In this document: positions 1,182 to 24,352 of the stretch, piece by piece
Layout of the letters: each line of letters begins with the position of its first letter
How positions within the stretch are numbered: the stretch's first letter is position 1
NCBI GenBank assembly: GCA_004212735.1
Contig: SHBD01000002.1
Span: forward strand, 220,323-254,231
Length of the DNA: 33,909 nucleotides
Direction of reading: 5' to 3'
Origin: SAR116 cluster bacterium
Lineage (GTDB): Bacteria > Pseudomonadota > Alphaproteobacteria > Puniceispirillales > Puniceispirillaceae
Position numbers and translations under genes: made by a program
Notes under the pieces: generated by a model
Databases searched by the model: none
What the model was told of the DNA's origin: nothing
What the model saw: the letters and a program-made list of their open reading frames with translations, nothing else

Positions 1182-2525
1182 CTATGTCAGCGCTTGGTCA
1201 GCGATCCAGAATGAGGGCAATTGCTCACCCAACCCCACCTTCTGCCAAAGTGAGTCAGCTTCACCCGCACCAATTAGACTTGCGGCCTTCGCCCTGACAC
1301 GTGCTTCGCGCGCAGGAAGTGACATCGGGTCAGTCAGATTGAATGACTGGCTGTGCTGGTCACCATTGGCCAGTTTGAGATCAACCGTTGCCGCCGAATC
1401 GGAAATCCCCGCGTCAGTGGCAACAATAACCTTTTCGCGCAGCCGCAGCACGTCCTTATCCTGACAGATCATATCATTATAGGTTTCAATCCGTGCCGTA
1501 TCGTGTCCATGCATGAACATCGCAGCCACAAGTCGATAACTGAACTTTGCTTCAAGCCCCGTCACCGGAGACGCAATGTTGCAGACATTCAGATATTGTG
1601 GATTCACAGTAATCACCAATTCGGCAATCTCTTCCGGTTGCACGGAATATCTCTCACGCAGGATGGCCAACGCCTCCAAGGTTGCGTGAATGCCGTGACA
1701 ACAGGCATGGAATTTATGGCTGACCCGCTCAAAGACAAAATCATCACCCAGACCATCGAATGCCCCGGTGTCGCCCGCACCGTGATGCGTTGGTGAGAAA
1801 CCCTGCTCGCCCTCCAGACCATCATGTGTGGAAACAAATCCGTCGCGGGCGAGAAGCGCAGCATCAACACCGGCATGGGCCGCCAGCCCTGCGTGCAGCG
1901 GCTTCCCCATAGTGCCAAATTGTGTCTTGATGCCACTCGCCATCGAGGCAGCGATGCCAAGTGCATGTCTGGTCCGTTCAGATGAGAGGCCAAGGATACG
2001 CGCCGATGCCATCGCAGCGCCAAAAGTGCCTGCCGTCGCCGTCATGTGAAAACCAGCATGATAATGGGACCGGCCTAGCCATGCCCCAATCCGCACAGCC
2101 AATTCGACCCCAATCAGAACAGCCTCGAGAAATGCTTTGGGCTGTGTAGACATCTTATCAGCAAGCGACAGTGCTGCTGGAATCACGGCAACAGAGGTAT
2201 GCCCCATAGAGTCAAAATGCGTATCATCATAGTCGAGCGCATGTGAGAGGGTGCCATTGATCTTGGCAGCCATCCGGGCCGGCAACCTGTGGCTACATCC
2301 AACCACAAATGCCTCGGGTGTGCCGCCTTCATCCTCGCCAATTTTCTGCAGAATACGGGCAACAGGTTCGTTCCGCCCAGCAACCGACACCGCCACCCAG
2401 TCAACCAGCGACAGGCGCATGACATGGCGTGCGTCATCCGGTATCGCTGTCCCCTCAAATTCACAGACAAACTGGACGATCTGATCCGAAATGCTACCCT
2501 TGTCAGCCTTGCTGTCTGGCTTCAT
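1182..2525 (-). CDS. MmgE/PrpD family protein
   Basis: This protein of about 447 residues belongs to the MmgE/PrpD family, whose characterised members include 2-methylcitrate dehydratase and cis-aconitate decarboxylase. The family pattern is seen in NGTLSHALDYDDTH (about residues 90-103), followed by GHTSVAVIPA, and the length is normal. I start it at the ATG at 2525. That ATG overlaps the stop of the upstream CoA-transferase gene as TGATG, and an AAGGAG lies 8 bases before it, so the two genes are translationally coupled. A TTG one codon earlier is less likely. No other methylcitrate-cycle gene is present, so it should not be called prpD. Its pairing with a CoA-transferase suggests that it dehydrates or isomerises a polycarboxylic acid feeding the CoA pathway next door, but that is inference. 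Confidence 0.87.
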   Translation of the reverse strand: MKPDSKADKGSISDQIVQFVCEFEGTAIPDDARHVMRLSLVDWVAVSVAGRNEPVARILQKIGEDEGGTPEAFVVGCSHRLPARMAAKINGTLSHALDYDDTHFDSMGHTSVAVIPAALSLADKMSTQPKAFLEAVLIGVELAVRIGAWLGRSHYHAGFHMTATAGTFGAAMASARILGLSSERTRHALGIAASMASGIKTQFGTMGKPLHAGLAAHAGVDAALLARDGFVSTHDGLEGEQGFSPTHHGAGDTGAFDGLGDDFVFERVSHKFHACCHGIHATLEALAILRERYSVQPEEIAELVITVNPQYLNVCNIASPVTGLEAKFSYRLVAAMFMHGHDTARIETYNDMICQDKDVLRLREKVIVATDAGISDSAATVDLKLANGDQHSQSFNLTDPMSLPAREARVRAKAASLIGAGEADSLWQKVGLGEQLPSFWIADQALT

Positions 2526-3646
2526 CAACTAAACTCCTTGCGAATTGCCGCACTATGCTGGCCAATATCTGGTACCCGATATGGTGCCTCACCTTTAGTC
2601 TGGACCGGCAACGCCGCCATGGAAATCTGAGACTCGCCGATCAGTGCTTTCTGGTTTCGCAGGAATTTATGCTCCGAAAGATCGGCAACGGAATTCAACC
2701 TTGCATTTGCAATGTTGGCATCATCGAGCCGGTTGAGGACCTGTTCAGCCGTTAATTCGCCAAACACATTGTCAATCATCCCGTTCAACGTATCGCGGTT
2801 GGCGAACCGGTCTGGATTATCGACAAAGCGTGGATCATCTGCAAGCGCAGTATCAGTCAATACGATTGCACAAAATGACCTGAATTCCCGGTTGCTTTGA
2901 ACTGACAGCAGAACCTGCCCGCCATCACCACAGGCAAACGCCCCATAAGGCGCGACAAAGGTGTGTTTTAACCCCATACGCTTGGGTGCCCCACCCGAAT
3001 AGCGATGTGCCATCAGCGGCATGTTCATCCAATCTGCCATAACATCAAACATGGAAATTGAAATATCGATTCCCTCACCGGTCCGGCCGCGCTGGATCAA
3101 TGCTCTCAGGATTGCCGAAAACGCCGTCATCCCCGTGGAGATATCAGTGATGGAGACACCAACGCGGGAAGGGCTGTCTTCTGTACCGGTAACCGAACAG
3201 ATTCCGCTCTCGCCTTGCACCAGAAAATCATAGGCCTTCTTCGTCGCGGCCTCTCCTGTCTCACCATACCCAGTCACCGCGCAGGTAATGAGGCCGGGAT
3301 TCTGTTGCCGCAGATCGGCGCCAACAAGCCCCATCCGGCCCAACGCGCCCGGTGCCAAGTTAGAGACCAGCACATCAGCCTTGCCAAGCATCCGGCACAA
3401 CAACGCCTTATCCTCATCTGCCTTCAAATTCAGGCAGACTGACTCCTTGCCACGGTTCAGCCACGCAAAGATGGCGCTTTGACCATCGGCGCCCGAGTCA
3501 TAACCTCTTGCAAAATCTCCCTCCGGACGCTCAACCTTGATCACCCTTGCTCCTGCATTGGCCATTAGCAAACCGCAATAGGGCGCGGCAACTGCCTGTT
3601 CCAATGAAACAACAAGGATCCCTGAGAGCTCAGTATCAAGACCCAT
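2525..3646 (-). CDS. Class III (CaiB/BaiF) CoA-transferase
   Basis: This 373-residue protein is a family III CoA-transferase, which moves CoA between carboxylic acids through an aspartyl-CoA thioester. The N-terminal fold segment GILVVSLEQAVAAPYCGLLM, the KVERPEGDFARGYD segment (residues 37-50) and the AYDFLVQGESG stretch (138-148) match the family. Asp168 in SITDISTGM sits where the catalytic aspartate of formyl-CoA transferase (Asp169) is expected. The ATG at 3646 has AAGGGG five bases upstream. It overlaps the MmgE/PrpD gene by three bases and diverges from the hydratase/lyase pair. Human SUGCT, which makes HMG-CoA or glutaryl-CoA from succinyl-CoA, is in this family, so activation of a C5-C6 dicarboxylate would fit the neighbours; the substrate is not shown. 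Confidence 0.88.
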   Translation of the reverse strand: MGLDTELSGILVVSLEQAVAAPYCGLLMANAGARVIKVERPEGDFARGYDSGADGQSAIFAWLNRGKESVCLNLKADEDKALLCRMLGKADVLVSNLAPGALGRMGLVGADLRQQNPGLITCAVTGYGETGEAATKKAYDFLVQGESGICSVTGTEDSPSRVGVSITDISTGMTAFSAILRALIQRGRTGEGIDISISMFDVMADWMNMPLMAHRYSGGAPKRMGLKHTFVAPYGAFACGDGGQVLLSVQSNREFRSFCAIVLTDTALADDPRFVDNPDRFANRDTLNGMIDNVFGELTAEQVLNRLDDANIANARLNSVADLSEHKFLRNQKALIGESQISMAALPVQTKGEAPYRVPDIGQHSAAIRKEFS

Positions 3647-3823
3647 ATTTACCCCTTACCTGACAACGCCGTGCGAATTAAAAAGTTTTGGCCAGAAGAA
3701 TTAGGTCAGAAAAATTTGACTCCATCCAAGAAATGATAGTGTGATTGTTGCTGGCTTGCAATTCTGCTCCACAAAGAACAGACAAATCAATTTCACCGCC
3801 ATTGGCACTACAAGGGGTCTCTC

Positions 3824-4618
3824 ATGCCACAATCGACCGACACGTTGAACGTTGCCATTATCGATGATCATATTCTCAGCGTGACGCTGGACAGGCCAGA
3901 GGCATCGAACGCCTTCAACACGCAAATGGCTTGGGATTTGATATCACTTTTTGAGGAACTAGCGGTGGCACCCGATAATCTGAGGGTTGTTGTTATCACG
4001 GGCGCAGGCGATCGGGCCTTTTGCGCTGGAGGCGATCTGAAAGAGCGTAATGGTATGACTGACCGGGAATGGTTTGCTCAGCATCTGGTGTACGAGCGGA
4101 TGGTGCGTGCCGTGGTGGGCTGCCCCCTGCCACTAATTGGGGCGATAAATGGTGCCGCATATGGCGGTGGGTGCGAGTTGGCAGCCGCATTGGATTTCAT
4201 CTACGTAAGTGAGACCGCACGCTTTGCCCAGACAGAAACAAGACTAGGCATCATCCCGGGTGCAGGTGGTACGCAAAATCTTGCTCGCGCAGTGGGCGAA
4301 AAAAGGGCGATGGAATTGATCCTTTCGGGCGCAGTCTTTTCTGCTGAGGATGCCGTTGCTTGGGGACTCGCAAATGCCATTTGCAAACCAGATGAATTGA
4401 TGGACGCCACACTCAGAGCCGCACGCGCCATCGCCAATAATGCGCCTATCGCCGTTCGGCAGGCAAAACAGGCCATCCATAAAGGCCTGCAAATGGGGTT
4501 GCTGGATGGTATGGCGTTTGAGATCGAGGCTTATAACCGCACTGTCTCAACAGCCGATCGCCGCGAGGGTGTGCTGGCTTTCAATGAAAAGCGTAAAGCC
4601 ATTTTCAAGGGAGAGTAG
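3824..4618 (+). CDS. Enoyl-CoA hydratase/isomerase, AUH (methylglutaconyl-CoA hydratase)-like
   Basis: This 264-residue crotonase-fold enzyme hydrates an enoyl-CoA. The oxyanion-hole segment FCAGGDLKERNGM (residues 66-78) closely resembles the CAGADLKER signature of AUH-type 3-methylglutaconyl-CoA hydratases. The two catalytic glutamates are present: Glu118 in GGGCELA and Glu138 in AQTETRLGIIPGAGGTQ. The ATG at 3824 has AAGGGG seven bases upstream. The lyase gene follows after two bases, so they form one operon. With an HMG-CoA-lyase-type partner, conversion of 3-methylglutaconyl-CoA to HMG-CoA is the simplest reading. No methylcrotonyl-CoA carboxylase or isovaleryl-CoA dehydrogenase is in the window, so leucine breakdown is not established. 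The 177 bases upstream, shared with the CoA-transferase gene, must hold a divergent promoter; TTGACT at 3716 is a possible -35 with no convincing -10. Confidence 0.88.
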   Translation: MPQSTDTLNVAIIDDHILSVTLDRPEASNAFNTQMAWDLISLFEELAVAPDNLRVVVITGAGDRAFCAGGDLKERNGMTDREWFAQHLVYERMVRAVVGCPLPLIGAINGAAYGGGCELAAALDFIYVSETARFAQTETRLGIIPGAGGTQNLARAVGEKRAMELILSGAVFSAEDAVAWGLANAICKPDELMDATLRAARAIANNAPIAVRQAKQAIHKGLQMGLLDGMAFEIEAYNRTVSTADRREGVLAFNEKRKAIFKGE

Positions 4619-4620
4619 TT

Positions 4621-5523
4621 TTGTCAGACCGGGTCATTCTGCGTGAGGTGGGCCTGCGAGATGGTTTGCAACTAATCAAATCTCGGCTAGACACCAACAC
4701 AAAGCTGGCGTGGATCAAAGCGCAGGCTGAGGTTGGCTTCACCGAAATTGAAGTGACTTCTTTTGTTCCAATATCTGTTTTGCCTCAATTTGCCGATGCC
4801 GCCACAGTCTTGGCGGGAGCAAAGAAAATTGACAATCTTTTGCCAACTGTATTGGTTCCCAACCTGCGCGGCGCGGTAATGGCAATGGATGCCGGCGCCA
4901 AAAAAATTACCTTTGTTCTGTCAGTGAGCGACTCGCATAACAGAGCGAATGTAAGACGAAGCACTGATGAGTCGCTTGCCATGTTGCGGGAGGTAGTCGC
5001 GGAACGTGACAATCGACAGGACATCACGCTTGTCACCGCGCTTGCCACCAGTTTTGGCTGCTCAATGGAGGGTGCGGTGAACGACGCTCGTGTCACCCAG
5101 ATCGCGGAATTTCTGGCGAATGAAGGGATAGACGAAATTAATCTCGCTGATACTGTCGGTTATGGTGATCCGATACAAGTCAGGCGTATCTTCACGGATG
5201 TTAAGACCGCCGTTGGTGACTTGCCACTTGCTGCACATTTTCATGATACACGTGGACTAGGTCTGGCCAATGTGATGGCCGCACTGGACGCCGGTGTTCG
5301 TCGTTTTGACTCCGCTCTTGGAGGGCTTGGCGGATGCCCCTTTGCCCCCGGCGCATCAGGTAACATCGCCACCGAGGACACGTTGCATTTGTTCGACAGG
5401 TTGGGCGTTGATACTGGGATCAACCTTGGGGCTTTGCTTGAGGTACGTCGCCACCTTGCCGAATGGCTGCCTGGGGAAAAACTGGAAGGACGCTTGCTTG
5501 GCGCCGGTCCGGCCAACAGATAA
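4621..5523 (+). CDS. Hydroxymethylglutaryl-CoA lyase family protein
   Basis: This 300-residue DRE-TIM metallolyase of the HMG-CoA lyase type would cleave HMG-CoA to acetoacetate and acetyl-CoA. It shows LREVGLRDGLQ (residues 7-17, with catalytic Arg13 and Asp14), IEVTSFV with Glu44, LADTVGYGDP with Asp177, metal ligands His206 and His208 in AHFHDTRG, and the lyase cysteine loop GGLGGCPFAPGASGN with Cys239 followed by Glu252. These match the catalytic set known in human HMGCL. The start is a TTG at 4621, three bases after the hydratase stop, with AAGGGAG at the end of the hydratase gene as ribosome binding site; no ATG is suitably placed. It is translationally tied to the hydratase. Lyases for related 3-hydroxy-3-methyl acyl-CoAs belong to the same family, so the exact substrate could differ. 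Confidence 0.9.
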   Translation: MSDRVILREVGLRDGLQLIKSRLDTNTKLAWIKAQAEVGFTEIEVTSFVPISVLPQFADAATVLAGAKKIDNLLPTVLVPNLRGAVMAMDAGAKKITFVLSVSDSHNRANVRRSTDESLAMLREVVAERDNRQDITLVTALATSFGCSMEGAVNDARVTQIAEFLANEGIDEINLADTVGYGDPIQVRRIFTDVKTAVGDLPLAAHFHDTRGLGLANVMAALDAGVRRFDSALGGLGGCPFAPGASGNIATEDTLHLFDRLGVDTGINLGALLEVRRHLAEWLPGEKLEGRLLGAGPANR

Positions 5524-5530
5524 TCCCAGC

Positions 5531-6358
5531 CTAGTGCGCGGCAACCGGGGTAAGTGGCTCGCGTCTGCCATAGAACAATTCCCGCACAGCCGGGCTGTTG
5601 GTTACACCCGGCCTGTCACGATAGCAAAGCGTAGTAATATAGCGCGTCCGTGACCCTTCAACGCCGGTCACCCTATGCAAGAGATTTCGTCCGCCAAACA
5701 GCAATAATGCCCCCGGGGTTATTGGAATTGTTGTGGTATCCTTCGCTGTACCGGCAAGAACCTTGCCCAGACGGTCATAATTATCATCACCACTGTCACG
5801 AAGGCCCCGAACAAACTCAAACTGTCCGCCGGCATCCGGTGCCTGTAACATGACCGAGACGGTAAACATCGCCTCATCATAATGCCAGCCATGCCCGTCT
5901 CCCTCATTCATCACATTGATGGTCATCGCTCCGATAGGGTCGGCAAAACGGTGAAAATCCTCGTAACCTAAAACAGCACCAATGAAATCACGTAACGGAT
6001 CCCAGCCATAAAGACTCCAAAGCGCACTGTTAGGTATCAGTTGATCACACCCAACAACATCAAGACGCGTGAGCTGACGCTGTCGGCGCGGATGATCGGC
6101 GGGCAGGCTGGTATCATCCTGCTCCAAATAGGCATTGTGCGTTTCATCACAATGGTAGGCATCGACCGACGCATTTTCGGCTTCGGCTGCCATCATGTTG
6201 ACAGCCGCATCGGTCAGGAAGCCCGGCATCAGACACACACCGTCACGCGCATAGATGCGTCCCATCTCCTCAACGAGTGCCTGGCGGGCAGGACTTGCCC
6301 GATCTGCAATAGGGTAGGCCTCCAGATTGACCAGCTGGTCCATTGCCTTCACCGTCAT
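5531..6358 (-). CDS. Phytanoyl-CoA dioxygenase-like Fe(II)/2-oxoglutarate oxygenase
   Basis: This 275-residue protein resembles PhyH/ArpA-like 2-oxoglutarate-dependent oxygenases that hydroxylate small molecules. The iron triad is visible: His159 and Asp161 in HGWHYDE, and His228 in LLHRVTG. Arg239 in SRTRYI would bind the 2-oxoglutarate carboxylate. Because the HxD aspartate is present, this is expected to be a hydroxylase rather than one of the related halogenases, which carry glycine or alanine there. The ATG at 6358 has an excellent AGGAGG six bases upstream. It converges on the HMG-CoA lyase gene with only seven bases between. The acidic, polar substrate side (YHCDETHNAYLEQDD, residues 68-82) suggests a polar substrate, but none can be named. 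Confidence 0.8.
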   Translation of the reverse strand: MTVKAMDQLVNLEAYPIADRASPARQALVEEMGRIYARDGVCLMPGFLTDAAVNMMAAEAENASVDAYHCDETHNAYLEQDDTSLPADHPRRQRQLTRLDVVGCDQLIPNSALWSLYGWDPLRDFIGAVLGYEDFHRFADPIGAMTINVMNEGDGHGWHYDEAMFTVSVMLQAPDAGGQFEFVRGLRDSGDDNYDRLGKVLAGTAKDTTTIPITPGALLLFGGRNLLHRVTGVEGSRTRYITTLCYRDRPGVTNSPAVRELFYGRREPLTPVAAH

Positions 6359-7558: not shown

Positions 7559-8770
7559 TTACTCAGCGGCCATCAAAACCTGTTTCTGAGGCGAGGTGAA
7601 GTGCATGACCGCCGCACCAACGCCGCTGCCAGCCTCGAAGGGGATGCCAGCATCACGCATCGCAAGCTCAGCTCCGCCAAGCGCCTGCAACACCATTGCC
7701 TCGTTCAGCCATCCAAGATGACCAATGCGAAACACCTTGCCAGCGACCTTGCTCAAGCCAGCGCCAAGGGACACGCCATAATTGTGGTAAGCGGCTTGGA
7801 TGACATCATTTGCGTTAGTGCCGTCTGCAACGCGAATTGCCGTCACAGTGTCGGAATGAATATCCGCTGTTTCTGCACAGGTACGCAGTCCCCAGGCTGT
7901 AACAGCGCGGCGGACACCCTCGGCAAGGCGGTGGTGACGCGCAAAAACGTTGTCGAGACCCTCTTCGAGCAACATATCAACCGATGTACGCAGTCCACGC
8001 AGTAGCGTTGCGGCAGGCGTGTACGGGAAATAGCCATTATCGTTGGCCGTTGCCATGTGCGTGAAGTCGAAATAGCCACATCCGAGATAAGTGTCCCCGG
8101 GACGCAGCGATACGTTCTTAATCTGGTACAACACTTTTTCGCTGACACCGACAATCGCCAAGCCAGTAGGCAGCATGAAGCCCTTTTGTGAACCTGAAAC
8201 GGCAACATCGACGCCCCACTGGTCCATATTGAATTCGATTGACCCTATTGAGCTGACTCCATCAACGAAAAGTAACGCTGGGTGATCCAAATCATTAAGC
8301 ATGGCGCGAACTGCAGCCACATCACTGGTGACCCCAGTGGCTGTTTCGTTGTGGCATACAAGCACGGCCTTAATGCTGTGGCGGCTGTCGGCCTCCAGCG
8401 CCTGTCTGTACGAATCAAGCGGCGTTGCCCGTCCCCAGGTTTGGTCAAAACAGGTCACGTTCAGATCGAGTTGGCGGCACATCTGCACCCAGAGATCAGA
8501 AAATTGGCCGAAAGATGATGCCAAAACACCATCACCAGCGCTGAGCGTGTTGCGAAGCGCTGCTTCCCAGCCACCTGTGCCAGACCCCGGGAAGACAAGA
8601 ACCCTGCCGGTCTCAGTGCGGAACACCTTTTTCAGATCAGCTAATAACGGCGTCACAAAATCTGGGAAATCAGGGGCACGATGGTCCTCCAGCGGGATTG
8701 CCATCGACTGCGCGATGCGGGACGGCATATTCGTTGGTCCGGGAACTGCAAGCGTTTTGTTACCAATCAT
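7559..8770 (-). CDS. Class V aminotransferase, BhcA / serine-glyoxylate aminotransferase type
   Basis: This 403-residue PLP enzyme belongs to the glyoxylate aminotransferase group that includes BhcA (aspartate-glyoxylate) and SgaA (serine-glyoxylate). Hallmarks are VPGPTNMP at 9-16, GSGTGGWEAALRNTL at 62-76 (phosphate cup), HNETATGV at 140-147, Asp170 in FVDGVSSIGS for the pyridine nitrogen, and the Schiff-base Lys196 in SGSQKGFMLP. By memory the sequence order and motifs resemble Paracoccus BhcA closely, but none of bhcB, bhcC or bhcD is in the window, so the activity could equally be serine- or alanine-glyoxylate transamination. The ATG at 8770 has AAGGAG six bases upstream. It is divergent from the XRE regulator gene, which probably controls it. 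Confidence 0.88.
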   Translation of the reverse strand: MIGNKTLAVPGPTNMPSRIAQSMAIPLEDHRAPDFPDFVTPLLADLKKVFRTETGRVLVFPGSGTGGWEAALRNTLSAGDGVLASSFGQFSDLWVQMCRQLDLNVTCFDQTWGRATPLDSYRQALEADSRHSIKAVLVCHNETATGVTSDVAAVRAMLNDLDHPALLFVDGVSSIGSIEFNMDQWGVDVAVSGSQKGFMLPTGLAIVGVSEKVLYQIKNVSLRPGDTYLGCGYFDFTHMATANDNGYFPYTPAATLLRGLRTSVDMLLEEGLDNVFARHHRLAEGVRRAVTAWGLRTCAETADIHSDTVTAIRVADGTNANDVIQAAYHNYGVSLGAGLSKVAGKVFRIGHLGWLNEAMVLQALGGAELAMRDAGIPFEAGSGVGAAVMHFTSPQKQVLMAAE

Positions 8771-8921: not shown

Positions 8922-10328
8922 ATGCAAAAGGCTTTTGTCGGCTCGAAGCTGCGACAACTTCGTCGCGACAGGGGGCAAACCCAGGCAGAGATGGCGGCTG
9001 TGCTCGGGATCAGCGCCGCCTATGTCAATATGCTAGAAAAGAACCAACGCAGCCTCTCGGTCAGCGTTCTCATGACGCTGTCTGACAATTACGGCGTTGA
9101 TTGGAGGGACCTTGTTTCTGACAAAAGTTCGGCCGTTCTCGCAGATTTGCGTGCCGCCATTCAGGATCCGTTTTTTAGCGTCAGTCGCCCAGATTTAGAT
9201 GAGTTAAGGGCCGCTGTAGATCAATCGCCACTTCTGGTTGAGGGGTTTTTGAAACTTTACAAAAGCCATCATACGACACTTGAAAAAATGATGCAGCTTG
9301 GCACGGAGCGAATGCCAGAGGAGCTTTTGCGCTCCTCGCCCGAAACAACCATCCATGATTTTTTCCGTGACAATTCAAATCATTTTGACCTGCTGGAACA
9401 AGCCGCAGAATCACTGGCGCGCGAAGAACCCCATGAGCCAGATGACGTGCAATTTGTCTTGAAACGACGGCTGCAGCAACGTCACGGGTTCTCCGTTATG
9501 ACCAGCCCTGTCGAAAAGATGGGAGATTCGCTCAGGATTTTTGATGAGGAGCAGAAGATCATCCGCCTGTCAGAAGCACTGGATCATCAGAACAGAACCT
9601 TTCAACTGGCTCATATTCTGTGTTTCACCGAATTTGGTGACATTCTGAATACATTGACGACCGATGCCAATCTGTATTCGCCAGCGAATGTAAAACGTTG
9701 TCATGTGGAACTTGCCAACTATTTCGCCGCCGCTTTTTTAATGCCATATGAGACCTTCATCACCCGGGCAGAGGAAACACGGTACGATTTGGACCGAATC
9801 GCTTCCGCCTTCTCAGTGTCATGCGAGCAGGCCTCACAGCGATTGACCACCCTGCAGCGCGATGGACGGCGTGGTGTTCCCTTCTTTTTTCTTCGTGTGG
9901 ACAAAGCGGGCAATGTCACCAAGCGGTTCAACGCGACCTCGTTCAGCATCGCCGAGCATGGGGGCGCCTGCCCGGTATGGAACCTCCATACATCGTTCCG
10001 CACGCCTGGTGTGATCTTGCCGCAAATTGTCGAATTACCCGATGGTGAGCGGTTTCTGACTTTAAGCCGAACCACGGAACGTCCAGTCTATTCAATGGAA
10101 ACGCAGGACCGCAGACTTGCCATTTCACTTGGCTGTGAGATCAAGCATGCTCGCAAGATCATCTATTCTAGCGCGATAGACTGGTCCGAAGATGAAAATG
10201 TCAGCAAGATCGGCATTAATTGTCATCTATGCCCCCGGCGAAACTGCGCGCAACGGGCGCACGATCCGATCATCACTGAGCTTTCGACAAATACGAACCG
10301 ACGCGGAGAGACACGTTACGAGAGTTAG
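8922..10328 (+). CDS. XRE-family regulator with IrrE/ImmA-like and DUF2083 C-terminal regions (ScfR/RamB type)
   Basis: This 468-residue transcription factor resembles the short-chain acyl-responsive ScfR/RamB/PrpR group that controls acetate, propionate or glyoxylate metabolism. Residues 8-60 form a helix-turn-helix (LRQLRRDRGQTQAEMAAVLG then SAAYVNMLEKNQRSLS). The middle region corresponds to the ImmA/IrrE-like domain (RTFQLAHILCFTEFGDIL, later HVELANYFAAAFLMPYE), but I see no HExxH zinc-protease motif, so proteolysis is unlikely. The C-terminus has the family's cysteine cluster, INCHLCPRRNCAQRA. The ATG at 8922 follows CGGAGA. It is divergent from the aminotransferase gene and converges on the methyltransferase gene, whose stop codon it overlaps. 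A CoA ester or glyoxylate-pathway metabolite as ligand is inference. Confidence 0.88.
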   Translation: MQKAFVGSKLRQLRRDRGQTQAEMAAVLGISAAYVNMLEKNQRSLSVSVLMTLSDNYGVDWRDLVSDKSSAVLADLRAAIQDPFFSVSRPDLDELRAAVDQSPLLVEGFLKLYKSHHTTLEKMMQLGTERMPEELLRSSPETTIHDFFRDNSNHFDLLEQAAESLAREEPHEPDDVQFVLKRRLQQRHGFSVMTSPVEKMGDSLRIFDEEQKIIRLSEALDHQNRTFQLAHILCFTEFGDILNTLTTDANLYSPANVKRCHVELANYFAAAFLMPYETFITRAEETRYDLDRIASAFSVSCEQASQRLTTLQRDGRRGVPFFFLRVDKAGNVTKRFNATSFSIAEHGGACPVWNLHTSFRTPGVILPQIVELPDGERFLTLSRTTERPVYSMETQDRRLAISLGCEIKHARKIIYSSAIDWSEDENVSKIGINCHLCPRRNCAQRAHDPIITELSTNTNRRGETRYES

Positions 10329-11908
10329 AAATCGGTTGGCGCGCCGCCTTCAGCCTTGCGCCGTTCGACAAAATCGGCGAGTGCCTCACGTCTGCTTTCT
10401 TCAAGAGGCGGAGCTTCAAATTCCTCAATAATCTGCTTGAAGAGTTTGTTTGCCCGCTCTGGCGTTCGCACACCACCTGACGCGTTCCACGCTTCAAAAT
10501 TCCGCCAATCGCTGACGAATGGCTCATAAAAGGCAGTCTGATAACGATCCTGGGTGTGCTGGATACCGAAGAAATGGCCTGATGGCCCAACCTCGTTGAT
10601 GGCATCAACGGCGATGGCGTCAGGTGAAGCATCCCATACGCTGGGTTCCATGTAACGCTGGATCATCTGCAGCATCTCACAATCCATAATCAACTTCTCG
10701 GGGCATGCAATCAGGCCGCCCTCCAACCAGCCGGCAGCATGATAAACCATGTTGGTGCCAGACTGCACCGCCGACCACAGCGAGTTTGATGTCTCCCAAA
10801 TGGACTGTCCGTCCGGCACATTGGCAGCGCAGACGCCCGATGCACGCATTGGCAAGCCATAAAAACGCGCCATTTGACCAGTGATCTGTGTGGCGCGCAT
10901 ATATTCAGGCGTGCCAAAGGCCGGTGCACCTGATTTCATGTCCACGTTTGATGTGAAGGTTCCGATAACACAGCAACAGCCCGGCTGCACATATTGAAAC
11001 AAGGTGATCGCCGCCAGAGCTTCGGCGATGGAAAGCGTCACAGCACCAGTCATGGTTACAGGTGCCATTGCTCCGGCAAGGGTGAACGGCGTTACGATCA
11101 CTGCCTGTCCGCGCCGGATCAGGCGCAGACACCCATCAATCATCGGTTGGTCATGTTTGAGCGGGGACGTTGAATTGATATTGGTAAACATGTGGGGCTT
11201 TGCGGAAAATTCCTCCTCGTCCAATCCACCTGCAATTTTCACCATCTCCATCACATCTTCGACTCGCTCCTTGCCCAGAGAATAGGCGTGCGCAACCTTG
11301 TCGGTCAGCAACAGTTTGTCATATAGAACATCCAGATGCCGCACAGAGGCATGAATATCCACCGGCTCCACCGGATAGCCGCCAACAAAATGGATGCAGT
11401 TGAAATATTGGGACAGTTTGATGAGATTTGCGCATTGTTCGCGGGTTCCGGGCATTTTCTGCCCGAGATCAACATCATAGTAGTTCGGTGGCGATGAAAC
11501 ATTGCCAAAGAGAATATGTTTGCCACCTATGACAAGTTCGCGATCAGGGTTGCGCGGGGTAATGGTAAACTCGTCCGGTGCCTTTGGGATCATTTCCATC
11601 ACCCATTCCCGGTCCATTTTTACATTGGTGCCATCAACCAGGCATCCAGCCTCGCGGAAGAGTGCCTGCGCCTCCTCATTGAGAAACTCGATCCCCGTTT
11701 CTTCCAGGATTCGCATTGCGCCGTCATGGATCGCCGCGACGCCCTGTTCGTCCAGAGGTTCGGTCGGTTGATCATAATTGACTGGCAGACGCCATGGCAT
11801 CTGCTTGAACAAGTCTTCACCTCGGCGCGCCGCGTTTGCCGCGCGGCCACCCGAACGCACCCTGCGTCCCCCGCGGCCACCGCCAACGTCGGGTAATTTG
11901 TCGTCCAT
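10325..11908 (-). CDS. Trimethylamine methyltransferase (MttB) family protein, non-pyrrolysine
   Basis: This protein of about 527 residues belongs to the MttB superfamily (COG5598), whose non-pyrrolysine members demethylate quaternary amines such as glycine betaine, proline betaine or carnitine and pass the methyl group to a corrinoid protein. The whole frame is open without an internal TAG, so no pyrrolysine is used. Recognisable parts are the N-terminal Gly/Arg-rich stretch (GGGRGGRRVRSGGRAA), AIHDGAMRILEETGIEF near residue 60, and VGPSGHFFGIQHT near the C-terminus. I prefer the ATG at 11908 over one ten codons upstream because GGGGGA sits six bases before it. No corrinoid protein or methylcorrinoid:folate methyltransferase gene is nearby, so partner and substrate are unknown. 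Its stop codon overlaps that of the convergent regulator gene. Confidence 0.87.
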   Translation of the reverse strand: MDDKLPDVGGGRGGRRVRSGGRAANAARRGEDLFKQMPWRLPVNYDQPTEPLDEQGVAAIHDGAMRILEETGIEFLNEEAQALFREAGCLVDGTNVKMDREWVMEMIPKAPDEFTITPRNPDRELVIGGKHILFGNVSSPPNYYDVDLGQKMPGTREQCANLIKLSQYFNCIHFVGGYPVEPVDIHASVRHLDVLYDKLLLTDKVAHAYSLGKERVEDVMEMVKIAGGLDEEEFSAKPHMFTNINSTSPLKHDQPMIDGCLRLIRRGQAVIVTPFTLAGAMAPVTMTGAVTLSIAEALAAITLFQYVQPGCCCVIGTFTSNVDMKSGAPAFGTPEYMRATQITGQMARFYGLPMRASGVCAANVPDGQSIWETSNSLWSAVQSGTNMVYHAAGWLEGGLIACPEKLIMDCEMLQMIQRYMEPSVWDASPDAIAVDAINEVGPSGHFFGIQHTQDRYQTAFYEPFVSDWRNFEAWNASGGVRTPERANKLFKQIIEEFEAPPLEESRREALADFVERRKAEGGAPTDF

Positions 11909-12039
11909 GGATAGTCCCCCATCTTGGCGATGCACCATGTCTTAAACACTGCAACCACATCACCGACAAATCTTGATTACGCTTTTCGCCGCTTGTCAAA
12001 CATTTCTGATTAAAGTTACCAGAATTAAATAGTTTGGGG

Positions 12040-12825
12040 TCATGTCAATCTGAGCGACAAACAGGACATGCCCCCATCAATTTTTGCGCATTCGCTGTTG
12101 TTGACGGGTCTGACATTAAAGCCAGCAGACTCAAGGCGTGCTTTGGTCGCTGGAAACCCAGCCGGCATGATCACCAGGTCATTGAAGCGGATGGCATTGG
12201 CTGCTGCCTCTTCGCCCTCGCAGGTCAGAATGACCTCATAAGCGGAGAAACAGCCAGACGAAGCAAGCCTTGGTGTCGAGAGGACAACACCATCATCCAG
12301 AAGAGAACAATCGGTCTTGAAATGCAGTACACCCGGCGGCGTATTGACTGTGCGAACGTAATAGCCCCACTCACCCACAATCTGCGTCAAAGCGGCAATG
12401 CCGTCAGCATTGGTCCGCTCGGAAGTGCCTACGAGAATTTCAGTGCCAGTAATCAAAATGTCGCCACCTTCAATATTGGCAGGGCGAGAGATTTGATGCG
12501 TCTCATCAAACAGATGCGCAATATCAGCACGCATCGATGCCACTTCACCAGCCCGAGATGGGGCACCGGGCGACATGAAGATAACCCCTTCAGGAAGGCA
12601 CAAAGCCGTGTCCTCGACAAAATGCGCATCGGGGAAAGCCGGCAATGCCGGTAGGGTAATCACATCGGCGCCAGTGCTGGCCAGCACAGAGCGGTAATCG
12701 ACATGATCAGCCAACATTTGATCAATGGATGGCATGCCCTGATCGACCGCCCGCAAGCCATCAACCGCATTTTGGCAGGGTAAACGCGTAATCGCCGTTG
12801 CAAACCTTGTAACGCCGGCTGTCAT
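12040..12825 (-). CDS. Dimethylarginine dimethylaminohydrolase family (amidinotransferase fold)
   Basis: This 261-residue enzyme of the guanidino-modifying superfamily most resembles DDAH, which hydrolyses N-omega-methylated arginines to citrulline and mono- or dimethylamine. Active-site elements are all visible: FVEDTA with Glu71 and Asp72, the NIEGGDIL substrate loop (117-124), catalytic His168 in GVLHFKTDCSLL and nucleophile Cys255 in GGMSCLSLR. The length fits DDAH better than arginine deiminase (about 400). The ATG at 12825 has GGGAG ten bases upstream. It lies upstream of the MttB-family gene on the same strand in separate transcription order (the methyltransferase start is on its far side), with 131 bases between them. 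A role in methylarginine use as nitrogen source is likely but inferred from the family. Confidence 0.86.
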   Translation of the reverse strand: MTAGVTRFATAITRLPCQNAVDGLRAVDQGMPSIDQMLADHVDYRSVLASTGADVITLPALPAFPDAHFVEDTALCLPEGVIFMSPGAPSRAGEVASMRADIAHLFDETHQISRPANIEGGDILITGTEILVGTSERTNADGIAALTQIVGEWGYYVRTVNTPPGVLHFKTDCSLLDDGVVLSTPRLASSGCFSAYEVILTCEGEEAAANAIRFNDLVIMPAGFPATKARLESAGFNVRPVNNSECAKIDGGMSCLSLRLT

Positions 12826-19974: not shown

Positions 19975-20679
19975 TCAGGAATTCCAGCTGGTTTTGTCAG
20001 CTTTTGGCCTGAATTCATCAACTAATTCGCCATTTGCCAGAAAATAAACCTGTTCGGCTATGCCTGTCGCGTAATCGCCGATGCGCTCAAAATTCTTGAC
20101 AATGAAAAGCAGATGAACACTGGCAATCATATGATCGGGGTCATTCTGCGCGGCTTTCACCAAGGATCGGTGAATTTTGGTATGTAGCTTGTCAACCTTG
20201 ACGTCACTATTGCGCACCTTGATTGCCAGCTCCACGTCAACCGCGTCAAAGGCAGCCATCACGTCATTCAACATTTCCATTGTAAGCTCAGCCATCTGCC
20301 GCAGATCGCCAACCGGAACAATCGTGGGGCCTTCTGCCAGTATCACCTTTGTCCGGTTCGCCGTATTGCGCGCATAATCACCCATTCTCTCAAGAATGGT
20401 CGCGATCTTTTGGATGACCAGAACAAGCCGTAAATCCTCTGCCCGCGGCGCACGCAAGGCAATGACCTCGACTGCCTGCTCGATAATTTCACTCTCCAGC
20501 TTATCAACTTTCTTGTCGCGCTTGATGAGCTTATCAAGGCCTTTGTCCTCAAGCGTCGAGAGAGACTGCGTTACGGCATTGAGTTGACGTTCGACAAGAT
20601 TAGCCAGACTTCTGACTTTTTCAGACATCTCATGGAGGTCCTGATCAAAGGCCGAGCTAGTATGGTGCGAACTTTGCAT
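19975..20679 (-). CDS. phoU: Phosphate transport/signalling regulator PhoU
   Basis: This 234-residue, wholly helical protein is PhoU, which links the Pst transporter to the PhoR kinase and restrains phosphate uptake. It has the two tandem PhoU repeats, with metal-binding-type motifs seen in EIIEQAVEVIALRAPRAEDL and ERMGDYARNTANR in the first, and KNFERIGDYATGIAEQVYFL in the second. The ATG at 20679 has AAGGAA three bases upstream. It follows pstB after 58 bases on the same strand, the usual pst operon order. Identification is firm from the paired ER(M/I)GDYA motifs and the context. Confidence 0.95.
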   Translation of the reverse strand: MQSSHHTSSAFDQDLHEMSEKVRSLANLVERQLNAVTQSLSTLEDKGLDKLIKRDKKVDKLESEIIEQAVEVIALRAPRAEDLRLVLVIQKIATILERMGDYARNTANRTKVILAEGPTIVPVGDLRQMAELTMEMLNDVMAAFDAVDVELAIKVRNSDVKVDKLHTKIHRSLVKAAQNDPDHMIASVHLLFIVKNFERIGDYATGIAEQVYFLANGELVDEFRPKADKTSWNS

Positions 20680-20737
20680 TTGTTCCTTACCCCGCGTTAA
20701 TTATGACCGTTAATCTGGTTAGCATAGCATACGTAAC

Positions 20738-21571
20738 CTAACCGAATCGCCCAGTAATGTAACTATTTGTAAGCTCGTGCTGTGGATTGGTAAAAATGGT
20801 GGACGTCTCACCAACCTCGATCAACCGGCCGAGATGAAAATAAGCTGTTCTATTCGACACCCTGGCCGCCTGCTGCATTGAATGCGTGACAATGACGATG
20901 GTGAATTCTTCACGTAGCTCAAAAATCAACTCTTCAATTCGCGCAGTTGCAATTGGATCCAGCGCTGAACAGGGTTCATCCATCAATATTACTTCGGGGG
21001 ATACCGCAATCGCACGCGCAATACACAAACGCTGCTGCTGGCCACCCGAGAGACCGGTGCCTGATTGGTCGAGACGGTCAGCGACTTCTTCCCACAATCC
21101 GGCACGGCGAAGCGAGGCTTCCACAATGCCATCAAGTTCATCCTTACTACTCGCCAGACCGTGAATTCTCGGGCCATAGGCAACGTTGTCAAAGATGCTC
21201 TTTGGGAAGGGGTTTGGCTTTTGAAAGACCATACCGACACTGGCGCGCAATGGCACGACGTCTATGTGAGGATCGTAAATATTCTGATCATCCAACTTGA
21301 TCTGGCCTTCCACGCGGCAGCTGTCAATTGTGTCGTTCATCCGATTCAAGCAGCGCAGGAAAGTTGACTTCCCACAGCCAGAAGGACCAATAAAGGAAAT
21401 AACCTGCTTTTCAGCAATATCCAGCGTCACATCATCAATCGCCATTTTGTCACCGTAAAACACATTGACATTCCGTGTCGTCATTCTTGGCGTATCAACA
21501 TAAACGTCCCCAACCGTAAGGTTGGGCAATTTGGACATCTCCATTTCAACAGGTGCTCTCATATTGTCCAT
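20738..21571 (-). CDS. pstB: Phosphate ABC transporter ATP-binding protein PstB
   Basis: This 277-residue ATPase drives high-affinity phosphate import with PstA and PstC. It has Walker [10 protein letters not shown], the Q-loop area [20 protein letters not shown] that is diagnostic of PstB, ABC signature LSGGQQQRL, Walker [14 protein letters not shown] and the switch His in [14 protein letters not shown]. The N-terminus has about 30 residues before the core ([17 protein letters not shown]). The ATG at 21571 is used, with a second ATG three codons later. It lies 38 bases after pstA and 58 before phoU, in one transcript. Confidence 0.97.
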
Positions 21572-21609
21572 CTTTTCGTTTCCACTTTTTTGTTCTCAAC
21601 CGGTCGAGG

Positions 21610-22914
21610 CTACCAGCGACGCTCAAGCCTGTTTCTAATAAAAATTGCAATGGCATTCATGAGGATAAGGAAACCCAGCAAAACGATGATTGCTGCGCTT
21701 GTCTTATGAATGAACATCCGCTCAGCAAAATCTGCCCACATGAAAATCTGCACAGGTAACACGGTGCCGGGATCTGTAACTCCGCCCGGTATGTCAACTA
21801 TAAATGCGACCATGCCGATCATCAACAAGGGTGCCGTCTCACCCAGTGCCTGCGCCATTCCGATAATCGTACCAGTCAGCATCCCGGGCATCGCCAACGG
21901 CAACACATGATGCGTCACAGTTTGTAACCTTGAAGCCCCCACTCCTAATGCTGCATCCCGAATGCTTGGAGGCACTGCCCTGATTGCAGCGCGCGAGGAT
22001 ATAATGATTGTGGGCAATGTCATAAGCGCCAGAACAACGCCGCCTATTAGGGGTATTGAGCGGGGCATACCAAAGATACCGATAAAGACAGCAAGACCCA
22101 GAATGCCGAAAACCACTGATGGCACCGCGGCAAGGTTGTTGATGTTAACCTCAATGATCTCGGTAATCCGGTTCTTTGGGGCAAATTCCTCTAGATAAAC
22201 AGCGGTGGCAACACCCATCGGGAACGCCAGCACCAAGCAAACGGCAAGAGTCAGCATCGAGCCAACGAACGCCCCTTTTATGCCGGCTATCTCTGGATCG
22301 CGTGAGGCACTGCCAAAAATCAAATAATCGCTGAAATCATAGCTGATCAGCTGCAGCTTCTGGAGCTTATTGATAAATTCGATTTGCTTGTCATTGATCC
22401 GTCTGTCCTTCTCAGGAACCGCGCTTGAAATATACCCTCTCAGGAAAGAGTCGGCATCATCATCAAGGGCAAATTTCATTGCCACTGTCTTTCCAAGCAG
22501 AGACGGATCTTTGATGATCGCCTCGCGCAAGCGCTGTTCAGCTCCCTTTGAAATCAATTTTCCCGCGGCTTTGCGACCCGAACGACCCTCAGCGCCGGTG
22601 GCTTTATAGAGCGCATTGCGAATGATGCCCCTCGCATCGCCATCATAGAGAGATTGAACGGATAAATCGCCAGCCGGATCAATTTTTTCCCGATCAACAA
22701 CAACTTCGAGTGTGACATAATATTGAAAAAAGCCGGGTATTCCCTTGGTGAAAATTGAAACAAAGAGAAGTACAAGAAAAGCCAGCGCAATGCCTATCGC
22801 AATACGCCCATATGTGCGGAATCGTCTCTCACCAGCACGCCTCGCCGCAAGGCTTGCGTTAACACGTGAGATCGCTACCTGCGGTGGGATAATGCCTTTG
22901 CGTGGCTCATTCAT
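21610..22914 (-). CDS. pstA: Phosphate ABC transporter permease PstA (long alphaproteobacterial form)
   Basis: This 434-residue permease is longer than the about 300 residues of E. coli PstA. The extra part is an N-terminal domain of the DUF3333 type (a first membrane helix near residues 35-57 followed by a roughly 130-residue soluble region containing EVVVDREKIDPAGDLSVQSL). The C-terminal half has the six-helix permease core with the EAA loop, RDAALGVGASRLQTVTHHVLP. Its start at 22914 overlaps the end of pstC by eight bases, indicating translational coupling. It would pair with PstC in the inner membrane to form the phosphate channel. Confidence 0.95.
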   Translation of the reverse strand: MNEPRKGIIPPQVAISRVNASLAARRAGERRFRTYGRIAIGIALAFLVLLFVSIFTKGIPGFFQYYVTLEVVVDREKIDPAGDLSVQSLYDGDARGIIRNALYKATGAEGRSGRKAAGKLISKGAEQRLREAIIKDPSLLGKTVAMKFALDDDADSFLRGYISSAVPEKDRRINDKQIEFINKLQKLQLISYDFSDYLIFGSASRDPEIAGIKGAFVGSMLTLAVCLVLAFPMGVATAVYLEEFAPKNRITEIIEVNINNLAAVPSVVFGILGLAVFIGIFGMPRSIPLIGGVVLALMTLPTIIISSRAAIRAVPPSIRDAALGVGASRLQTVTHHVLPLAMPGMLTGTIIGMAQALGETAPLLMIGMVAFIVDIPGGVTDPGTVLPVQIFMWADFAERMFIHKTSAAIIVLLGFLILMNAIAIFIRNRLERRW

Positions 22915-24292: not shown

Positions 24293-24310
24293 TTTATCCC
24301 CCTATCAGGA

Positions 24311-24337
24311 CGAGACCCACGTGGTACGCGGGTCTCG
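24311..24337 (-). promoter_or_regulatory. Intercistronic hairpin between pstS and pstC
   Basis: CGAGACCC (24311-24318) pairs perfectly with GGGTCTCG (24330-24337), with a further CG/CG pairing inside the loop after one mismatch. It lies wholly in the 60-base gap between pstS and pstC and is not followed by a T-run on the minus strand. Hairpins here are known in other operons to stop part of transcription or to stabilise the upstream message, so that the binding protein is made in excess over the permeases. Confidence 0.6.
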
Positions 24338-24352
24338 CAACTTAGTCCAGTG

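What the first reader, a model, noticed from the sequence alone, without database searches (positions are those of the whole stretch)
1182..5523. Divergent module: MmgE/PrpD, SUGCT-like CoA-transferase, AUH-like hydratase and HMG-CoA lyase
The four genes supply activation of a free dicarboxylic acid, hydration and C-C cleavage. One possible route is 3-methylglutaconate or hydroxymethylglutarate to acetoacetate and acetyl-CoA, without the leucine-pathway carboxylase. The MmgE/PrpD partner is unexpected in that route and could supply the acid by dehydration or decarboxylation. I know of no characterised pathway with just this set.
Basis: inference. Interest (0 to 1): 0.6.

Follow-up and report, generated by a model that had tools for sequence, protein, structure and literature searches.

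The report
Branched dicarboxylate degradation module, HMGL-type
Four neighbouring genes, which in many other proteobacteria stand beside a fifth that this genome keeps elsewhere, look like a separately assembled version of the known bacterial pathway for breaking down methylsuccinate- or itaconate-like acids, with a lyase that is probably mislabelled as HMG-CoA lyase.

Summary
The four genes are real and exactly placed: MmgE/PrpD and class III CoA-transferase on one strand, enoyl-CoA hydratase and an HMGL-family lyase on the other. The set is conserved beyond this genome. Of 80 loci around close HMGL relatives, 17 carry CoA-transferase, hydratase, HMGL, MmgE/PrpD and a fifth gene, an acyl-CoA dehydrogenase. 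That dehydrogenase is in this genome too, on another contig. The set mirrors, step by step, the characterised itaconate/methylsuccinate cluster (Ict, Ich, Ccl, Mcd, Msi; PMC12290011), but four of the five enzymes are different families or distant subfamilies. The lyase keeps the metal and most catalytic residues of HMG-CoA lyase but lacks its critical Tyr167 (0 of 45 such lyases; 4 of 4 leucine/mevalonate-context controls have it). No methylcrotonyl-CoA carboxylase was found in the genome. Most likely route: methylsuccinate (or a close 2-substituted succinate), epimerised by MmgE/PrpD, then CoA ester, dehydrogenation, hydration, and cleavage to acetyl-CoA plus pyruvate. No substrate was measured. 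New variant of a known kind.

The parts
1182..2528 (-). MmgE/PrpD family protein, 448 aa; proposed epimerase/isomerase of a 2-substituted succinate
   Evidence: Pfam PF03972 200.8 bits, PF19305 56.9 bits. Catalytic H96, D99, H110, Y156, H161, K209, K272 present. In a 16-row set (SH-aLRT 99) with the Cupriavidus oxalaticus cluster protein.
2525..3646 (-). class III (CaiB/BaiF) CoA-transferase, 373 aa; proposed activation of the dicarboxylate at the unsubstituted carboxyl end
   Evidence: PF02515 325.5 bits. In 61 genomes (own plus 60 relatives) homologues lie within 5 kb of PrpD in 25 of the 25 genomes that hold both. Only 26% identical to the Ict-type transferase of L062.
3647..3823 (.). divergent intergenic region, 177 bases, likely the shared promoter region
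   Evidence: Blocks of identity kept in two congeneric genomes. No strong inverted repeat.
3824..4618 (+). crotonase-family enoyl-CoA hydratase, 264 aa; proposed hydration of the branched enoyl-CoA to a tertiary alcohol
   Evidence: PF00378 227.1 bits. A hydratase stands with the HMGL in 37 of the 80 loci, the second type and the carboxyltransferase loci left out; best reference match is the window hydratase or the Variovorax one at 52-69% identity.
4621..5523 (+). HMGL-family (DRE-TIM) lyase, 300 aa; proposed 2-alkylmalyl-CoA (citramalyl-CoA type) lyase giving acetyl-CoA and a 2-oxo acid
   Evidence: NF004283 279.3 bits (cut-off 246; two leucine-context controls 449 and 485). AlphaFold2 model pLDDT 89.5; Foldseek rank 1 is 6nds, solved with CoA and 3-methylmalate. 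Human Tyr167 position is Ala.
5531..6358 (-). HalD/PhyH-like oxygenase, convergent neighbour; membership of the pathway uncertain
   Evidence: PF23169 56.8 bits. Next to HMGL at 84-86% identity in G001 and G002; not labelled in the other loci.

Best explanation
The module, with an acyl-CoA dehydrogenase encoded elsewhere in the genome, degrades a 2-substituted succinate, most likely methylsuccinate and perhaps itaconate or mesaconate. MmgE/PrpD interconverts the enantiomers of the free acid. The class III CoA-transferase makes the C4-CoA ester. The dehydrogenase makes the mesaconyl-type enoyl-CoA. The crotonase adds water to give a citramalyl-CoA-type tertiary alcohol. The HMGL-family lyase cleaves this to acetyl-CoA and pyruvate (or another 2-oxo acid). 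It works like the Ict-Ich-Ccl-Mcd-Msi pathway but is assembled mostly from other enzyme families. Shown: gene content, families, conservation, residues. Inferred: every substrate and the direction of every step.
For: Gene-for-gene parallel with the characterised cluster (PMC12290011, introduction, results and discussion read). 17 of 80 loci hold all five genes. Own-genome dehydrogenase 81% identical to the one beside the CoA-transferase in G018. In 61 genomes (own plus 60 relatives) CoA-transferase and PrpD lie within 5 kb in 25 of 25 genomes holding both; the lyase near the CoA-transferase is HMGL in 6 genomes and a CitE-type lyase in 13 others, never both. The CitE lyase of G020 resembles the itaconate lyase RipC model, though below its cut-off (239.7 bits, cut-off 375). 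MmgE/PrpD members act on 1,4-dicarboxylates, and the window protein keeps the residues named for the isomerase mechanism. The lyase lacks Tyr167, called critical for HMG-CoA lyase in PMC6941031 (passage), and the Foldseek-best solved relative holds 3-methylmalate, a C5 acid.
Against: No assay of these proteins was found. PrpD comparators are defined by gene neighbourhood; the assayed Msi sequences were not at hand, and the three comparators from canonical-type clusters are not one group on the tree (3 changes; two of them lie outside the 16-row set). PrpD of the beta-proteobacterial and rhizobial HMGL clusters forms another branch; the Tyr is kept in 10 of 24 HMGL-cluster PrpDs and is absent from the L099 copy, which lies near the window's on the tree. 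In the window genus the dehydrogenase is not beside the module. Three lyases that lie 3-4 kb from a carboxyltransferase of possible leucine type (L131, L139, L141) also lack Tyr167, so its loss does not by itself exclude HMG-CoA. In 8 of the 13 genomes the CitE match near the CoA-transferase is weak, 29-38% identity. A CitE lyase 76-77% identical to the own-genome one sits beside PrpD in two loci that also have HMGL, so HMGL may not be the only lyase. CitE-type lyase PA0883 also cleaves (R)-HMG-CoA (PMC6689899), so the swap does not exclude a C6 substrate.
Confidence: 0.48

Rival explanations
1. C6 route: HMG, 3-methylglutaconate or 3-methylglutarate is activated, oxidised if saturated, hydrated to HMG-CoA and cleaved to acetyl-CoA and acetoacetate.
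For: Family names of hydratase and lyase; lyase above the HMG-CoA lyase model cut-off (279.3 against 246). Dehydrogenase and lyase chemistry fits any 3-branched acyl-CoA. Own genome shows no other HMGL-length lyase among three PF00682 hits. Three lyases near a carboxyltransferase of possible leucine type share the missing Tyr167.
Against: MmgE/PrpD has no obvious task on an achiral 3-methylglutarate and known members use succinate-type backbones. Tyr167 absent in 45 of 45 lyases of this context. CoA-transferase far below the succinate-glutarate model cut-off (218 against 750).
Confidence: 0.22
2. Same chemistry but another branched acid, made in marine relatives from a methylated nitrogen or sulfur compound via an alcohol and aldehyde.
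For: Aldehyde dehydrogenases 75-78% identical to that of L046 stand inside or a few kb from the cluster in L099, L100 and L105, with alcohol dehydrogenase. In L052, and by position L053-L054, PrpD is followed on the same strand by a DmdA/GcvT-like protein, a GbcA-like Rieske oxygenase and a DddP-family protein. Window neighbours include an MTTB methyltransferase and a DDAH-like protein.
Against: Those extra genes are not in the window module; own genome has no copy of that aldehyde dehydrogenase above 48%. Tricarboxylate-type binding proteins occur in 9 of 17 five-gene loci, which suggests uptake of the acid itself.
Confidence: 0.2
3. MmgE/PrpD is a cis-aconitate decarboxylase or citramalate dehydratase that feeds itaconate or a similar acid into the other three enzymes.
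For: Family contains cis-aconitate decarboxylase; structures named IRG1 from Bacillus are the best solved matches (160 bits), though PMC12290011 doubts that name.
Against: Decarboxylases score lower (at most 90 bits) and the one shown has Met in place of the Tyr. The characterised cluster isomerase showed no activity on itaconate, citraconate, mesaconate or aconitates.
Confidence: 0.06
4. Leucine catabolism: the lyase is the genome's HMG-CoA lyase and the rest are unrelated neighbours.
For: It is the only HMGL-length lyase found among three PF00682 hits.
Against: The only full-length carboxyltransferase scores 784 bits on TIGR01117 while three methylcrotonyl-type ones score 300-321. Carboxyltransferase genes occur in only 3 of 80 related loci. 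Model score and Tyr167 set the lyase apart from the leucine-context controls.
Confidence: 0.04

Closest known systems
Itaconate/methylsuccinate degradation cluster Ict-Ich-Ccl-Mcd-Msi (Pseudomonas aeruginosa PA0878-PA0883, Cupriavidus necator; PMC12290011, PMC9875883)
   Same: [quoted passage not shown] in some cases a tricarboxylate-type binding protein near.
   Different: Crotonase instead of MaoC-type hydratase; HMGL instead of CitE-type lyase; dehydrogenase 25-33% identical to two Mcd-type comparators, with its conserved Glu elsewhere; CoA-transferase 26% identical to the L062 one. In the window genus the dehydrogenase is on another contig.
HMG-CoA lyase (human HMGCL, PA2011/LiuE, Bacillus subtilis YngG)
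   Same: Fold, metal ligands and catalytic Arg, Glu, Cys.
   Different: Tyr167 absent, Tyr at the human Val208 position, model score 279 against 449 and 485 for two leucine-context controls.
Acinetobacter baumannii lyase of PDB 6nds (named HMG-CoA lyase, solved with CoA and 3-methylmalate)
   Same: Best solved match by sequence and by Foldseek, 41% identical; tied with human lyase by VIA-align; Thr at the Tyr167 position in the alignment.
   Different: Gene context and activity not examined here.
Mycobacterium tuberculosis Rv2498c (PMC6689899)
   Same: A lyase able to serve both citramalyl-CoA and HMG-CoA, in itaconate and leucine routes.
   Different: CitE family (recalled), specific for (R)-HMG-CoA and (S)-citramalyl-CoA.

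Membership tests
Canonical itaconate/methylsuccinate cluster | Class III CoA-transferase of the Ict type | tested here: not met
   26% identity to the L062 Ict-type protein, which itself scores 458.6 bits on the mesaconate CoA-transferase model (cut-off 700) against 191 for the window protein.
Canonical itaconate/methylsuccinate cluster | MaoC-type itaconyl-CoA hydratase | tested here: not met
   Hydratase gene of the module is ECH_1 (crotonase) family. The rest of the genome was not searched for MaoC.
Canonical itaconate/methylsuccinate cluster | CitE-type (S)-citramalyl-CoA lyase in the cluster | tested here: not met
   Lyase is HMGL family; a RipC-like CitE lyase exists on another contig, 261.8 bits against cut-off 375.
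Canonical itaconate/methylsuccinate cluster | Mcd-type methylsuccinyl-CoA dehydrogenase | tested here: not met
   Dehydrogenase on contig C3 is 28% identical to the L062 Mcd-type protein.
Canonical itaconate/methylsuccinate cluster | MmgE/PrpD methylsuccinate isomerase | tested here: inconclusive
   45% identity and a shared 16-row set (SH-aLRT 99) with the L062 cluster protein; mechanism residues present; assayed sequences not at hand; other canonical-type comparators lie outside that set.
HMG-CoA lyase | Curated model score | tested here: met
   NF004283 279.3 bits, cut-off 246.
HMG-CoA lyase | Metal ligands and catalytic Arg41, Glu72, Cys266 | tested here: met
   All present in the window and in 99 of 99 aligned lyases.
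HMG-CoA lyase | Catalytic Tyr167 | tested here: not met
   Ala140 in the window; 0 of 45 group A, 0 of 43 group B, 0 of 3 near a carboxyltransferase, 4 of 4 leucine/mevalonate-context controls have Tyr.
Leucine degradation cluster | Methylcrotonyl-CoA carboxylase in the genome | tested here: not met
   Only a propionyl/methylmalonyl-type carboxyltransferase and two partial hits in a 96% complete genome.
Methylglutaconyl-CoA hydratase (AUH) | Closer to AUH than to other crotonases | tested here: not met
   AUH structure 149 bits, best enoyl-CoA hydratase 196 bits.
SUGCT (succinate-hydroxymethylglutarate CoA-transferase) | Curated model score and substrate | tested here: not met
   NF052585 218 bits, cut-off 750; substrate not testable here.
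cis-Aconitate decarboxylase | One-base site without the epimerase Tyr | tested here: not met
   Tyr156 present in the window protein; Met in the one decarboxylase shown.

The most novel reading that the evidence does not exclude
A third, independently assembled pathway for branched C5 dicarboxylates (after the Yersinia and Pseudomonas types) is widespread in alpha- and beta-proteobacteria. Its lyase is a distinct subfamily of DRE-TIM enzymes, annotated as HMG-CoA lyase in public records, that cleaves citramalyl-CoA or other 2-alkylmalyl-CoA esters. By analogy with (S)-HMG-CoA lyase it may take the (R)-citramalyl-CoA enantiomer that CitE lyases reject.
Probability: 0.33. Interest if true: 0.7.

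Novelty: new variant of a known kind. Interest (0 to 1): 0.55.

Why it matters
If true, a large set of genes annotated as HMG-CoA lyase serves dicarboxylate degradation rather than leucine or ketone metabolism, and methylsuccinate/itaconate-type acids are used by more bacteria than the known clusters suggest. The same chemical task would have been solved with mostly different enzyme families, which makes substrate specificity of HMGL, crotonase and acyl-CoA dehydrogenase families directly testable. It also gives clear candidates for enzymes that handle the other citramalyl-CoA enantiomer.

Tried and rejected
Rejected: leucine pathway (no methylcrotonyl carboxylase found); AUH identity of the hydratase; orthology of the dehydrogenase with Mcd; cis-aconitate decarboxylase for PrpD. 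Tried without result: Rfam on the window, 0 matches; tRNA scan, none; inverted repeats in the divergent promoter, weak only. An attempt to align the dehydrogenase with an isovaleryl-CoA dehydrogenase used the gene upstream of a methylcrotonyl carboxylase (L180), which has the ordinary Glu position, so it did not serve; that the conserved Glu of these dehydrogenases sits where isovaleryl- and long-chain dehydrogenases carry theirs is recalled, not tested. Paper searches. Those combining HMG-CoA lyase terms with methylsuccinate, MmgE, CoA-transferase or citramalyl-CoA terms were 22 (0 papers), (20 of 66 listed; 20 of 24 listed; 15 of 54 listed); by title and abstract start none of the listed papers describes this HMGL-type set, but the unlisted ones were not seen and only open-licence papers are held. 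The JBC paper on human lyase complexes is not held. The taxon of the genome was not established by any search.

The residue table used 99 lyases: all 80 loci plus 19 others; 2 were in no group. Of the 40 of 80 loci with a hydratase, L131 and L141 (31% hydratase, near a carboxyltransferase) and L146 (second type) were not put in group A, which leaves 37. Aeromonas locus L181 (no annotation) was fetched and not used. In one search the second PrpD of L137 is a distant extra copy; some beta-proteobacterial PrpDs have a Tyr one residue earlier. In one search, 36 dehydrogenases were used; hits under 50% identity were left out. Counts depend on the E-value limits.
Full report
Observation. PrpD and CoA-transferase overlap by four bases on the minus strand; hydratase and lyase lie two bases apart on the plus strand; 177 bases separate the pairs. 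The window is part of a 2.49-Mb, 66-contig genome judged 96% complete.

Conservation near home. In two congeneric genomes (G001, G002) all four genes are kept in the same arrangement at 78-92% identity. In three genomes of another family (L052-L054) the same divergent order holds, with a 385-395-aa acyl-CoA dehydrogenase between CoA-transferase and PrpD. In five genomes of one genus of the window's own family (G013, G020, G025, G030, G034) the CoA-transferase, dehydrogenase and hydratase are kept, no PrpD match was found, and the lyase place is taken by a CitE-type protein; the one tested, of G020, scores 239.7 bits on the RipC itaconate lyase model, below its cut-off of 375. Across 61 genomes (own plus 60 relatives), CoA-transferase and PrpD lie within 5 kb in 25 of the 25 genomes that hold both; HMGL lies near the CoA-transferase in 6 genomes and a CitE lyase in 13, with no overlap. 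In 8 of those 13 the CitE match is weak, 29-38% identity.

Conservation far away. A scan with the HMGL alignment kept the best 80 of 573 relatives. Within these loci (up to 8 kb each side), 40 of 80 hold an enoyl-CoA hydratase as well as the HMGL, 27 of 80 also the dehydrogenase, and 17 of 80 all five genes, in Roseovarius, Pelagibius, Bradyrhizobium, Bosea, Falsochrobactrum, Bordetella, Polaromonas, Ramlibacter and others. Thirty-eight of 80 are of a second type: HMGL with another CoA-transferase, a tricarboxylate-type binding protein in 27 of 38, and hydratase in 1, dehydrogenase in 3 and PrpD in 5 of 38. A carboxyltransferase occurs in 3 of 80. Gene context follows the lyase tree: the 45 lyases of hydratase context (37 of the 80 plus 8 others) need 3 changes on the tree against 32.9 for shuffled labels.

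The fifth gene. The own genome carries the dehydrogenase on contig C3, 81% identical to the one beside the CoA-transferase in G018. Its family is 56-84% identical among the copies compared, and 25-33% identical to two Mcd-type proteins. In 34 of 34 of these proteins a conserved Glu sits in an NAER/NSER motif and none at the position where the two Mcd-type proteins have Glu. This is a different enzyme of the same superfamily in what looks like the same role.

What the parallel suggests. [quoted passage not shown] also passages of PMC9875883). Every step has a counterpart here. The same paper notes that known MmgE/PrpD substrates share a four-carbon 1,4-dicarboxylate and that isomerase members have an added catalytic Tyr. 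The window PrpD has that Tyr and the other named residues. Its highest bit score among the 40 plasmid records listed of 535 is the MmgE/PrpD of a Cupriavidus oxalaticus cluster of the canonical five-gene layout. On the tree it sits with marine HMGL-type clusters (8 rows, support 99) inside a 16-row set (99) that also holds that protein. Against this, the two other comparators from canonical-type clusters (L065, L170) lie outside that set; PrpD of the beta-proteobacterial and rhizobial HMGL-type clusters is another branch; and the Tyr is kept in 10 of 24 HMGL-cluster PrpDs and is His in the L099 copy. So a common PrpD function is not shown.

The lyase. It passes the HMG-CoA lyase model (279.3 bits, cut-off 246), but two leucine-context lyases score 449 and 485, while two further CoA-transferase-context lyases score 283 and 292. 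Metal ligands and Arg41, Glu72 and Cys266 of the human enzyme are kept in all 99 aligned lyases. Tyr167, listed among the most critical residues in PMC6941031 (passage seen), is present in 4 of 4 lyases beside methylcrotonyl carboxylase or degradative HMG-CoA reductase, and in the human and B. subtilis sequences, but in 0 of 45 lyases with hydratase context and 0 of 43 of the second type. The controls are few. A result against a clean split: 0 of 3 lyases that lie 3-4 kb from a carboxyltransferase, on the other strand, have Tyr (L131, L139, L141); that carboxyltransferase is 33-34% identical to the own-genome one and may be of the leucine kind. The AlphaFold2 model (pLDDT 89.5) matches human HMG-CoA lyase and 6nds about equally (Z 41.4 and 41.3, tied); Foldseek ranks 6nds first. 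6nds is titled as an HMG-CoA lyase in complex with CoA and 3-methylmalate.

Stereochemistry. PMC6689899 uses PA0883 as an (R)-specific and PA2011 as an (S)-specific HMG-CoA lyase (section read) and finds that Rv2498c takes (R)-HMG-CoA and (S)-citramalyl-CoA. These two have the same arrangement in space by the naming rules (my inference). An HMGL-type lyase of unchanged handedness would therefore take (R)-citramalyl-CoA. This would fit loci L100 and L101, which hold both lyase types in one cluster. It also warns that the lyase swap alone does not separate C5 from C6 substrates.

C6 route. Three PF01039 hits were found in the genome; the only full-length one scores 784 bits on TIGR01117, whereas three methylcrotonyl-type subunits score 300-321, so the leucine route through methylglutaconyl-CoA appears absent, within the limits of a 96% complete genome. 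It leaves MmgE/PrpD without an obvious task.

Upstream. In L052, and by position in L053 and L054, PrpD is followed on the same strand by a DmdA/GcvT-like protein, a GbcA-like Rieske oxygenase (both below model cut-offs) and a DddP-family protein (667.8 bits, cut-off 600). Aldehyde and alcohol dehydrogenases stand in or near the clusters of L046, L099, L100 and L105. These hint at methylated onium compounds as a source in the sea, but the own genome has no close copy of that aldehyde dehydrogenase (best 48%).

Verdict. A convergent variant of a known kind of pathway, found in many proteobacteria, not described in the papers listed by my searches, with the substrate inferred and not shown.

Noticed in passing
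window 7559-8770 (-) and 8922-10328 (+): Aminotransferase close to BhcA of the beta-hydroxyaspartate cycle (560.9 bits, cut-off 650) beside a RamB/ScfR-like regulator (402 bits, cut-off 700).
   Followed up: no
window 10325-11938 (-) and 12040-12825 (-): MTTB-family methyltransferase (731 bits) next to a DDAH-like protein (192.5 bits, cut-off 450); both point to methylated nitrogen compounds.
   Followed up: no
window 5531-6358 (-): HalD/PhyH-like oxygenase beside the lyase also in G001 and G002 (84-86% identity).
   Followed up: partly
L060 12535-13611 (-), just upstream of the window on the same contig: Tartrate dehydrogenase-family gene (561 bits, cut-off 470) on the strand of PrpD, with a 538-aa ORF between that looks like a SulP permease by eye (untested); an isocitrate/isopropylmalate dehydrogenase-family gene also lies near PrpD in G001 and G002.
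   Followed up: partly
L052 1915-5709, L053 13352-17136, L054 1789-6398: GcvT/DmdA-like, Rieske and DddP-family genes follow PrpD on one strand; families tested in L052 only, the other two judged by position and N-terminal letters; L054 has an extra crotonase among them.
   Followed up: partly
L037 5974-8229; L130; L142: Roseomonas plasmid gene annotated as HMGL is 751 aa, long enough to be a lyase-CoA-transferase fusion, and is followed by an aconitase-family gene; two loci from Limnohabitans also have an aconitase-like gene near the lyase.
   Followed up: no
38 of the 80 loci L098-L177: A second HMGL type with CoA-transferase, a TctC-like binding protein in 27 of 38, and a hydratase in 1 of 38: perhaps direct use of a hydroxy acid such as citramalate.
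   Followed up: partly
L131, L139, L141: HMGL without Tyr167 lying 3-4 kb from a carboxyltransferase on the other strand; whether these serve leucine is open.
   Followed up: partly
window 19975-25420 (-): Phosphate uptake operon: binding protein, two permeases, ATPase and PhoU.
   Followed up: no
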